59,497 nt of DNA. Origin: Defluviicoccus sp. (GTDB lineage: Bacteria > Pseudomonadota > Alphaproteobacteria > MPNO01). The notes beneath the pieces are model-generated. The model saw nothing but the letters and a program-made list of their open reading frames with translations, did not search any database and was not told where the DNA came from. The DNA lies in the NCBI GenBank assembly GCA_028820505.1, contig JAPPIT010000222.1, forward strand, positions 1-59,497, read 5' to 3'. Positions 57,002 to 59,497 of the stretch are shown here, in pieces; the first letter of the stretch is position 1; the number at the start of each line of letters is the position of its first letter. Position numbers and translations under genes: made by a program.

Positions 57002-57123
57002 AAGTTTCCTCCCGGGACCGAATGTCGGCGGTGAGTCCAGTGTGCCGATCGGGTAGTTTATTGTAATGCGTTCGTCGGTTGCATTGGAGGGATAACCGGC
57101 GGCCTGCACAACGGGGAAACGCC
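57002..57123. promoter_or_regulatory. Divergent promoter region, AhpD-like / amidohydrolase
   Basis: The 122-base gap between the divergent genes is relatively A/T-rich in its middle (AGTTTATTGTAATG about 57055). A minus-strand -10-like TACAAT (57065-57060) is plausible, but I cannot define full promoters. Confidence 0.4.
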
Positions 57124-58821
57124 ATGGACTACGACCTCAGGATCGTCGGCGGGACGGTGATCGACGGCAGCGGCGCCGAGCGCTTCCGCGGCGACGTGGC
57201 GCTCAGCGGCGGACGGATCGCGGCTGTCGGCGAGGTATCGGGGTCCGCCGCGCGGACGATCGACGCGGAGGGGTGCGTGGTCGCGCCCGGCTTTATCGAC
57301 ATTCATTCCCACTACGACGCCCAGGTGATGTGGGATCCCATGCTGACCGTCTCGCCGTGGCACGGCGTGACCAGCGTGGTCATGGGCAATTGCGGCTTCG
57401 GCGTAGCGCCCGCGAAGCCCGGCAATCGCCTTCCGCTGATGCAGACGCTCGAGAACGTCGAAGGCATGAGCCTCGCCGCGCTCGAGGAAGGGCTCGACGG
57501 GTGGCCGTTCGAGAGCTTCCCGGAATATCTCGACGCCATCGAGGCGCGCGGCACCGCGGTCAATGTCGGCGCGATGGTGGGCCATTCGGCGGTGCGGCTC
57601 GACGTGATGGGGCTCGACTCGACCGAGCGTCCCGCGCGTCCCGACGAGGTCGAGGCGATGGCCCGGATCGTCGGCGAGGCGGTCGCCGCCGGGGCGCTCG
57701 GCTTCTCGAGCTCGACCTCGCGGCTCCATGTCGGCTTCGCCGGCAAGCCGGTGCCGAGCCGTCTCGCCGACATGGCGTCGGAGACGATTCCGCTGGCCGA
57801 GGCCGTCGGCCGGAACGGCGGCGGCGTCGTGCAGCTCACCAACGGGATCGAGCCCGACTTCGCGGCCTTCGAGAAGCTTGCCCGCGCGGCCGGCACGGTC
57901 ACCTGGACCGCCCTCCTGACCCGTATCGGCGACGACTCGCTGCACGAGCGGCATCGCGAGCAGGCGGCGCGGCAGCACGCGGACGAGCTGCCCATCTACC
58001 CGCAGGTCTCCTGCCGGCCGCTGACGATGGAATTCCAGTTCGCGGCGCCGTTCCCGTTCGACCGGCTCGATTCGTTCAAGCCGGCGACCGCCGCGGACGC
58101 GGACGGCAAGCGGCGGATTCTCGCCGACCCGGCCTTCCGCGCCGCGGTCAAGCGCGAGCTTGCCGAGGGCGCGGCGGTCGAGCCGCAGACCTGGGCGCTG
58201 GTCATGGCGCTCGAGAGTCTCGAGGTCTCGGCCTGCGCCGAACGGCCGGAGCTCGAGGGACGGAACGTGCCCGAGGCCGCCGCCGAGCAGGGCGTCGACC
58301 CGCTCGACCTGACGTTCGACCTCGCGGTCGCCTCCGGCCTGGAGACCCGGTTCCGCATCCCGCTGGCGAACACCAACGAGGGCGCGATCGCCACGCTGCT
58401 GACCGAGCCATTCACCGTGCTCGGGCTCTCGGACGCGGGCGCGCACGCGAGCCAGCTTTGCGACGCCTGCTTCTCGACCCACCTCCTCGGGCGGTGGGTG
58501 CGGGACAAGGGCGCCCTCACGCTCGAACAGGCGATCGATCATCTGTGCGCCCGTCCGGCCGCGATCTTCGGCCTCGCCGGACGGGGACGGCTGGCCCCCG
58601 GCTGGGCCGGCGACGTGGTGGTGTTCGACCCGGAGACCGTCGGGGCGGGGCCGCTCGAACGGGTCCGCGACCTCCCGGCCGGCGCCGACCGGCTGATCTC
58701 GATCCCGACCGGCGTCCGCGCCGTGGCGGTCAACGGAACCGTCGTGCGCCGCGACAACGAGACCCTGCTCGGCGCGGACGATCCCATGCCCGGACAACTG
58801 CTCCGCCGCGCCGTGAACTGA
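57124..58821 (+). CDS. N-acyl-D-amino-acid deacylase-like amidohydrolase
   Basis: This 565-residue amidohydrolase-superfamily enzyme has the metal HxH motif at H61 and H63 (GFIDIHSHYDAQ), the VTSVVMGNCGFGVAP segment, and a C-terminal region with SDAGAHASQLCD carrying the catalytic Asp. The family (N-acyl-D-aspartate/D-glutamate deacylase, amidohydrolase 3) cleaves N-acyl groups from D-amino acids; the exact substrate is unknown. ATG 57124 is chosen because the preceding in-frame codons are not conserved. Confidence 0.87.
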   Translation: MDYDLRIVGGTVIDGSGAERFRGDVALSGGRIAAVGEVSGSAARTIDAEGCVVAPGFIDIHSHYDAQVMWDPMLTVSPWHGVTSVVMGNCGFGVAPAKPGNRLPLMQTLENVEGMSLAALEEGLDGWPFESFPEYLDAIEARGTAVNVGAMVGHSAVRLDVMGLDSTERPARPDEVEAMARIVGEAVAAGALGFSSSTSRLHVGFAGKPVPSRLADMASETIPLAEAVGRNGGGVVQLTNGIEPDFAAFEKLARAAGTVTWTALLTRIGDDSLHERHREQAARQHADELPIYPQVSCRPLTMEFQFAAPFPFDRLDSFKPATAADADGKRRILADPAFRAAVKRELAEGAAVEPQTWALVMALESLEVSACAERPELEGRNVPEAAAEQGVDPLDLTFDLAVASGLETRFRIPLANTNEGAIATLLTEPFTVLGLSDAGAHASQLCDACFSTHLLGRWVRDKGALTLEQAIDHLCARPAAIFGLAGRGRLAPGWAGDVVVFDPETVGAGPLERVRDLPAGADRLISIPTGVRAVAVNGTVVRRDNETLLGADDPMPGQLLRRAVN

Positions 58822-59497
58822 AGGGCGCTCCTCTCCCTCCCCGCCGTCATGCCCGGACTTGTTCCACTACTGTCCGGTTAAGATTTCGGGGCGGGCTCCG
58901 CGCCCATGAGCGACACCGTCTCCGTCCCCCGCTGTCACCCCGGACTTGATCCCATAGGCGCTAACTTGTTCCGGATGGCGGTTGAATGGCGCCGGGTCTT
59001 CCGCGCCACCGGCCCGGAGACCGGGCAAAAGAGAGGAAATCACCGGAGCGGGTCCGGTTCGGTTGGAACCGCTTCGTCCGTTCTCCTCCGTCATGGTCGG
59101 CGAAGGCCGACCATCCACGATTTGTTTTTGGTTCCAGCGCCTTGAAAACTCGTGGATGGTCGGCCTTCGCCGACCATGACGGTGAGGCGGCAGAGGTAAA
59201 GGCGCTTCTATCTGAAACGGGCGGGCTCTCGAACCGGCGGGCGAACCGGCTCGTCGCCACCGTTCGAGCGGTTGAAACGTCTCGAAACACGCCGCAAATC
59301 GCGAAGTTAGCGCTTATGGGATCGGGTCCGGGGTGACAGCGGGGGGAGAAGGACGGCGGAGGCAGGCGGGCCGCGATCCGTGTCCCGATCCGGCGGAAGA
59401 GCCGGAAACCCGCCTGTACCGACGCCTTGTGCCGGGTCCAACCCAACTAAACCGTCATGGTCTCGGCGGTACTGAGCCACCCCGTGGCATGAAACTC
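58822..59497. other. Non-coding region with nested inverted repeats
   Basis: No supportable gene lies in the final 676 bases. Short open frames here have no recognisable motif and overlap repeats on both strands. The region begins with an inverted copy (58845-58865) of the repeat found at 87-107 and 223-243, then carries the composite palindrome at 58926-59345. Confidence 0.7.
58926..59345. repeat. Composite nested palindrome (MITE-like)
   Basis: Outer arms 58926-58967 and 59304-59345 are inverted copies of 42 bases with three differences. A perfect 33-base inverted pair (59088-59120 and 59150-59182) lies inside, each arm itself palindromic (GGTCGGC/GCCGACC). No transposase is encoded. The structure could be a non-autonomous mobile element or two dispersed repeat families that inserted in each other. 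Confidence 0.65.

What the first reader, a model, noticed from the sequence alone, without database searches (positions are those of the whole stretch)
58926..59345. Nested inverted-repeat element
42-base inverted outer arms (3 mismatches) enclose a perfect 33-base inverted pair that itself contains palindromes. The geometry suggests a MITE or an intermediate of repeat expansion.
Basis: seen in the sequence. Interest (0 to 1): 0.5.

Follow-up and report, generated by a model that had tools for sequence, protein, structure and literature searches.

The report
Russian-doll nest of mobile repeats
A 420-base stretch of a bacterial chromosome is a stack of mobile DNA repeats inserted one inside another; each layer is of a known type, but one small jumping element carries a pair of hairpin repeats of a kind thought to have no transposase of its own.

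Summary
In detail: 42-nt outer arms with 3 mismatches, and a perfect inner 33-nt pair. It is a stack of insertions, not one MITE.

From outside in:
- A dispersed repeat Y carries a TGTC-tagged REP palindrome (REP-A).
- REP-A is split by a transposase-less IS4-type element (X). The outer arms are half a REP plus the IS4 terminal repeat.
- X holds a 189-bp MITE (M). M's ends resemble those of an IS630 element in the same genome, and one empty/filled pair shows insertion at CTAG.
- M's core is an inverted dimer of a CGTC-tagged REP (REP-B): the inner arms.

REP-B units number 206 here, against 20, 18, 0 and 0 in four congeners. Of 16 X-type ends, 14 abut REP-A. A complete X-type copy elsewhere (C160) has an exact 11-bp target duplication. 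The window copy has none, at either the X or the M level.

Each layer has published precedent. I met no report of a CGTC-REP dimer carried by an IS630-type MITE. That would be a partial answer to how CGTC REPs spread without a dedicated transposase. But 27 of 67 dimers examined lack M arms, so it is not the whole answer.

The parts
58844..59454 (.). Dispersed repeat Y, here split by the inserted layers. Intact copies are about 320-350 bp, with CGTCATGCCCGGACTTGTTCC-type ends and a REP-A dimer in the middle. The right end of the window copy is truncated.
   Evidence: BLAST of 58751-59497 against fetched loci; intact copies L056, L053, L063
58932..58952 (+). REP-A, left outer half (TGTC tag, stem ACCCCGGA, loop, up to the X junction). 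Junction 11-mer GGACTTGATCC at 58942-58952.
59319..59339 (-). REP-A, right outer half. Junction 11-mer GGATCGGGTCC at 59319-59329; not a direct repeat of the left one (7 of 11; 9 of 11 as reverse complement, counted by eye).
58953..58970 (+). Left terminal repeat of X, CATAGGCGCTAACTTGTT, IS4 type
   Evidence: same repeat bounds the IS4-family element at G000:C8
59304..59318 (-). Right terminal repeat of X, AAGTTAGCGCTTATG
58953..59318 (.). Element X: transposase-less IS4-type element or remnant, containing M
   Evidence: left part shared with C214, C97 and C5; weak internal similarity to IS4 ends
59046..59228 (+). Element M: IS630-type MITE body between the (degraded) TA positions; 59043-59231 counted CTAG to CTAG (189 bp)
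59089..59117 (+). REP-B unit 1: CGTC tag, 9-bp stem ATGGTCGGC, loop GAAG, stem GCCGACCAT, tail CCA
59153..59181 (-). REP-B unit 2, inverted, tag outward

Best explanation
A nest of successive insertions of short mobile DNA. A dispersed repeat Y carries an inverted dimer of a TGTC/CGTC-type REP (REP-A). An IS4-family group of elements inserts at the REP-A palindrome and duplicates 11 bp (GGA-N5-TCC: loop plus 3 bp of stem on each side) (shown by sequence elsewhere in this genome; inferred for the window copy). X is a transposase-less element with the same terminal repeats. A 189-bp MITE, M, sits inside X; M inserts at CTAG with TA duplicated, probably moved in trans by an IS630-family transposase (terminal-repeat similarity and one empty site shown; mobilisation inferred). 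M's core is an inverted dimer of a CGTC-tagged REP (REP-B), so each jump of M would also copy a REP-B dimer (inferred). X with M inside occurs, incomplete, at three further loci. In the window copy the two X flanks come from opposite members of the REP-A dimer, so it is probably a recombinant of two X copies that lost the dimer's inner halves (inferred).
For: M is dispersed: most listed own-genome matches fall within query 116-310 of 420 and align end to end with CTAGAGC...GCTCTAG ends. The M terminal pattern occurs 65 times at <=1 mismatch against 1 for the reversed control. IS630-family element at C21:20530-21583 with such ends; its right end matches the two M ends at 16 and 15 of 18 bases, its left end at 13 and 13, while the best window position reaches 12. 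Empty/filled pair L063/L028: joined flanks match at 91 of 100, no gap (counted from the alignment). REP-B: 206 units, reversed control 0. X: 14 of 16 ends abut CCCGGA-N5-TCC, against 20 matches in 58,800 plus-strand window positions. Exact 11-bp duplications: GGATCAGGTCC at C160 and GGACACGACCC at C8 (read from sequences). IS4-family transposase in the C8 element, 149.6 bits over a cut-off of 115. The X-M junction is shared by window, C214, C97 and C5.
Against: The window copy has no direct duplication at X and has lost TA on both sides of M (CG, TC). TA is kept at only 18 of 32 left and 19 of 32 right M ends, both in 10 of 32 (a few rows mis-anchored). The two ends of the C8 IS4 element are not in REP-A. 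X shares little beyond the terminal repeat with IS4 ends. Only one empty site was found, and there the left junction of the filled copy reads CCAG, not CTAG. The other X(M) copies are truncated or run towards a contig end. Movement was not observed.
Confidence: 0.8

Rival explanations
1. The whole 58926-59345 stretch is one MITE bounded by the 42-nt arms and moves as a unit.
For: Long outer arms. The X-M composite, including the REP-A half, recurs at C214, C97 and C5, so a composite was copied. C214 shares flanks with the window on both sides.
Against: The first 26-27 nt of each arm are half of a REP found 113 times in this genome at <=2 mismatches, and the X terminal repeat occurs next to REP-A without M. 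None of the three other copies has the right outer end.
Confidence: 0.07
2. REP-B dimers are independent mobile units; M is a REP-free MITE into which a dimer inserted, so M is a target rather than the vehicle of REP-B.
For: 27 of 67 distinct dimers have no detectable M arm and 15 have one arm; free dimers share the spacer edges TTTTGTTTT...AAAAACT.
Against: M-borne dimers have more uniform spacers (mean identity 0.86, 25 dimers) than free ones (0.71, 27 dimers; between groups 0.70), as expected if one captured dimer multiplied with M. The 8 short M forms listed were read by eye as deletion forms of the dimer; no clear REP-free ancestor was seen. Capture by a single early insertion is compatible with the main reading.
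Confidence: 0.2
3. The window copy of X arose by insertion without target duplication into a single short REP-A hairpin, not by recombination of two X copies.
For: Short single REP-A hairpins exist (L062); the flanks are nearly reverse complements, as the two halves of one hairpin would be.
Against: Complete X-type copies at C160 and C8 have exact 11-bp duplications; intact Y copies carry a REP-A dimer at this place.
Confidence: 0.25

Closest known systems
CGTC-tagged REPs (Di Nocera et al. 2013, PMC3733652; abstract, passages and section 7 read)
   Same: REP-B and REP-A have the CGTC/TGTC tag, short stem, 4-5 nt loop, CCA tail and inverted-dimer arrangement; high copy number; mainly alphaproteobacterial in the paper.
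   Different: REP-B's 9-bp stem with 4-nt loop is not one of the paper's four stem/loop combinations (REP-A's 8/5 fits family 2). Here many dimers lie inside a TIR element; [quoted passage not shown] neapolitanus dimers inside 41-bp palindromes.
ISRm22, a REP-targeting IS4-family element of Sinorhizobium meliloti (Tobes and Pareja 2006, PMC1525189; passages read)
   Same: IS4 family, insertion at the axis of a REP palindrome; some copies with unequal direct repeats, which the paper explains by recombination between copies.
   Different: 6-bp direct repeats there, 11 bp here; X has no transposase gene; sequences were not compared.
QMITE2 of Coxiella burnetii (PMC5896051; passages read)
   Same: A MITE that carries a REP which serves as target for an IS.
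   Different: GTAG REP and IS1111 there; CGTC REP dimer and IS630-type ends here, and the IS target (REP-A) is not the REP carried by the MITE.
IS630-family elements and their MITEs
   Same: TA target, similar terminal repeats, small non-coding element.
   Different: Core is a CGTC-REP dimer. Only a listing was seen for IS630 MITEs; the TA rule for IS630 is recalled and agrees with the C21 copy.

Membership tests
IS630-type MITE (layer M) | Short, dispersed, no transposase gene, with terminal inverted repeats | tested here: met
   181-190 bp full forms, 107-126 bp short forms; 65 terminal-pattern hits against 1 control
IS630-type MITE (layer M) | Terminal repeats shared with an autonomous IS630 element | tested here: met
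   C21 element ends match M ends at 16, 15, 13 and 13 of 18; IS630 model 111.5 bits over 100 for the C-terminal frame, 61.6 (below) for the N-terminal frame. No similarity test beyond the ends.
IS630-type MITE (layer M) | TA target duplication | tested here: inconclusive
   One empty/filled pair at CTAG; TA at 18/32 left, 19/32 right, both 10/32, background TA 1.2%; window copy lacks TA on both sides
IS630-type MITE (layer M) | Mobilised by the IS630 transposase | not testable with these tools
   needs a transposition assay
CGTC-tagged REP (REP-B) | CGTC/TGTC tag, 8-9 bp stem, 4-5 nt loop, CCA tail, many copies, inverted dimers | tested here: met
   206 units; 67 distinct dimers in fetched loci; 9-bp stem with 4-nt loop is a combination the paper does not list
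CGTC-tagged REP (REP-B) | No associated Y1 (RAYT) transposase | tested here: met
   no PF01797 match in the genome; 5 of 14 control genomes ring
REP-targeting IS4-family element (layer X) | IS4-family transposase | tested here: not met
   X itself has none; the C8 element with the same terminal repeat has one. X is therefore filed only as IS4-type, non-autonomous.
REP-targeting IS4-family element (layer X) | Insertion into REP at a fixed point | tested here: met
   14 of 16 ends abut CCCGGA-N5-TCC; the 2 others are the C8 element's
REP-targeting IS4-family element (layer X) | Direct target duplication of constant length | tested here: inconclusive
   exact 11 bp at C160 and C8; absent in the window copy
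REPIN/RAYT system | RAYT transposase gene (Y1_Tnp) in the genome | tested here: not met

The most novel reading that the evidence does not exclude
CGTC REPs, a large repeat class of alphaproteobacteria with no known transposase, spread partly by being captured as the hairpin core of IS630-type MITEs, and their palindromes in turn serve as landing pads for IS4-type elements, which gives self-feeding nests of repeats.
Probability: 0.3. Interest if true: 0.55.

Novelty: new variant of a known kind. Interest (0 to 1): 0.35.

Why it matters
It offers a concrete, testable route (transport inside an IS630-type MITE) for part of the spread of CGTC REPs, which were described as apparently lacking a dedicated transposase (PMC3733652, abstract). 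It also shows how a geometry that looks like one exotic element can come from ordinary successive insertions. Otherwise the parts are of known kinds.

Tried and rejected
RAYT mobilisation: no PF01797 match in the genome. Known RNA family: 5 Rfam matches at E <= 1 on 58500-59497, all far below their gathering scores (best 50.2 against 105 bits, microRNA hairpin models); taken as hairpin artefacts. PF01609 (DDE_Tnp_1) elements as partner of M: none of the 29 loci carried the M end at <=2 mismatches; the PF13358 search then gave C21, which does, and C89 in this genome, in whose locus (L147) no M end was found at <=3 mismatches. Wider spread of M by exact pattern in genome contigs: one locus only, a Defluviicoccus MAG; records of this genome may be left out there. 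Organism name: not established. Literature: searches showed no paper on a CGTC-REP dimer inside an IS630-type MITE; I saw listings, and passages of five papers. The library lacks most subscription journals.

Limits of the counts. The 67 dimers come from loci L009-L088, L150-L169 and the window, after dropping identical ones. L009-L048 were mostly picked from the BLAST hits (biased towards M), others from REP-A and M-end searches, L150-L169 from the listed part (100 of 206 hits listed). The null contained M copies and was replaced by window 1001-58000. The 32 M pairs include a few wrongly anchored ends (for example L067, L070, L074), kept in the count. In one search, loci L001-L008, L109 and L120 were dropped as duplicates, and the window's right X end, too short for the pattern, is not among the 16. 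One search scored 40 of 336 candidates.

Full report
Observation. Outer arms 58926-58967 and 59304-59345 are 42 nt with 3 mismatches; inner arms 59088-59120 and 59150-59182 are a perfect 33-nt pair. Thirty dinucleotide shuffles reach at most 10 nt of perfect inverted pairing against 33 observed; the RNA-fold z-score is -13.6. The window is a whole contig of G000, 5,494,439 bases in 228 contigs. The feature follows an amidohydrolase gene (57079-58821; PF07969) and ends 152 bp before the contig end.

Copies. The 420 bp give 86 matches in the own genome, with 40 of 336 candidates scored. Most listed matches fall within query 116-310, so the repeated unit is an inner element, M, or only its REP core. 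The first 120 bases match over more than 100 bp at three other places, C214, C97 and C5; at C160, C64 and C30 only about 45 bases match, and elsewhere about 22-27, which is the REP alone. No other copy has both outer ends.

Layer M. Full forms run 181-190 bp from CTAG to CTAG, with CTAGAGCggaTCCGTTTT on the left and AAACGGACAGGCTCTAG on the right around a REP dimer; five forms of 125-126 bp and three of 107-110 bp also appear. The loss of 63 bp in the 126-bp form equals the spacing of the direct repeats at 59093 and 59156. The terminal pattern occurs 65 times at <=1 mismatch, control 1. PF13358 finds two places in this genome. One, C21:20530-21583, is a 1054-bp element, TA to TA, with ends TAGAGCATATCTGTCTTAGAC and TAGAGCGTATCCGTTTTAGAC, lying between CCC and GGG. 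Its right end agrees with the two M ends at 16 and 15 of 18 bases and its left end at 13 and 13; the best window position reaches 12. Its transposase reading is in two overlapping frames; the C-terminal frame scores 111.5 bits on the IS630 model (cut-off 100), the N-terminal frame 61.6, below the cut-off. A programmed frameshift is possible and untested.

Target of M. L063 reads GGGGCTAGGTGTCGG where L028 has M with CCAG on the left and CTAG on the right. The joined flanks of L028 match L063 at 91 of 100 positions without a gap. Over 32 M pairs, TA is next to the end at 18 left and 19 right ends, at both in 10; TA is 1.2% of dinucleotides in the window. The window copy has CG and TC instead.

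Layer REP-B. The core of M is an inverted dimer of CGTC-ATGGTCGGC-GAAG-GCCGACCAT-CCA, usually with about 31 nt between the 30-nt motifs. This fits the CGTC REPs of PMC3733652 (abstract, passages, section 7), except that a 9-bp stem with a 4-nt loop is not among its four combinations. G000 has 206 units at <=3 mismatches, reversed control 0. Of the 26 other genomes of the order searched, 22 have none and four have 20, 18, 27 and 21. Of 67 distinct dimers in the fetched loci, 25 have both M arms, 15 one, 27 none (the sample is biased). M-borne spacers are more alike (0.86) than free ones (0.71; between groups 0.70), as expected if M took up one dimer and multiplied it. What moves the free dimers is unknown; no Y1 transposase was found.

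Layers X and REP-A. REP-A (TGTC-ACCCCGGA-CTTGA-TCCGGGGT-CCA) occurs 113 times in G000 and 101, 43, 13 and 29 times in G002-G005 at <=2 mismatches. Each outer arm is 27 nt of REP-A and its neighbour bases plus the start of a terminal repeat, CATAAGCGCTAACTTGTT. That repeat bounds a 1360-bp element at C8:41481-42840 with an IS4-family transposase (149.6 bits over 115; PF01609), the only match of that protein in this genome. Of 16 such ends in fetched loci, 11 from this genome and 5 from G002, 14 directly follow CCCGGA-N5-TCC at <=1 mismatch; the two exceptions are the C8 element's ends. The same motif has 20 matches in 58,800 plus-strand window positions. Direct repeats of 11 bp are exact at C160 (GGATCAGGTCC) and at C8 (GGACACGACCC). 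The C160 copy itself holds REP-A-like and REP-B dimers, a second nest. Between its ends X resembles IS4 ends only weakly, so X may be an internally deleted relative or a separate non-autonomous element.

Window copy of X. The flanking 11-mers are GGACTTGATCC and GGATCGGGTCC: 7 of 11 alike directly, 9 of 11 as reverse complements. In intact Y copies (L056, L053, L063) such sequences are the outer halves of the two members of a REP-A dimer. Recombination between X copies in the two REPs, with loss of what lay between, would give this; PMC1525189 proposed such hybrids for ISRm22 copies with unequal repeats (passages). This step is inferred.

Order of events (inferred). Y with its REP-A dimer; X into REP-A; M, already with REP-B, into X; then copying of X(M), because window, C214, C97 and C5 share the junction GGAAATC(A/G)CCGG. 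C214 also shares Y flanks with the window, so for that pair duplication of a larger piece is possible. C214 and C5 share a truncated right side.

Assessment. REPs as IS4 targets (ISRm22, PMC1525189), CGTC REPs (PMC3733652) and a MITE that carries a GTAG REP hit by an IS (QMITE2, PMC5896051, passages) are all in print. What I did not meet in searches is a CGTC-REP dimer as the core of an IS630-type MITE. [quoted passage not shown]

Noticed in passing
L049 1087-1486 (G000:C160): A second nest: an X-type element with exact 11-bp target duplication GGATCAGGTCC, containing a REP-A-like dimer and a REP-B dimer, itself inserted in the right REP-A of a Y copy.
   Followed up: partly
L032 3290-3380, L033 1050-1141, L035 1043-1132, L036 1046-1137: The spacer of the REP-B dimer is inverted relative to the M arms in these copies, as if flipped by recombination between the inverted REPs.
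   Followed up: no
L037 and L038 (G000:C56 and C27): Two REP-B dimers with nearly identical flanking sequence at two places, not of M type: a possible larger duplicated unit.
   Followed up: no
G000 contig starts, e.g. C52:23, C64:24, C65:32, C95:23, C97:10: Several contigs begin within a few dozen bases of a REP-B unit: assembly breaks at these repeats, so copy counts are probably low.
   Followed up: no
G002:C51:26450-26562, C61:16092-16236, C100:94-607: REP-A-like units beginning GACCCC lie in direct arrays with regular spacing (46, 62 and about 245-248 bp).
   Followed up: no
L110 3872-3900 (JAJEHI010000079.1): A Defluviicoccus MAG holds an exact match to the left end of M, the only one in genome contigs outside this genome's own records.
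   Followed up: no
L146 about 1836 (G003:C15): A PF13358 element of a congener with a terminal sequence much like that of the C21 IS630 element.
   Followed up: no
L140 1393-2338 (G000:C21): IS630 transposase lies in two overlapping frames with a run of seven A between them: possible programmed frameshift.
   Followed up: no
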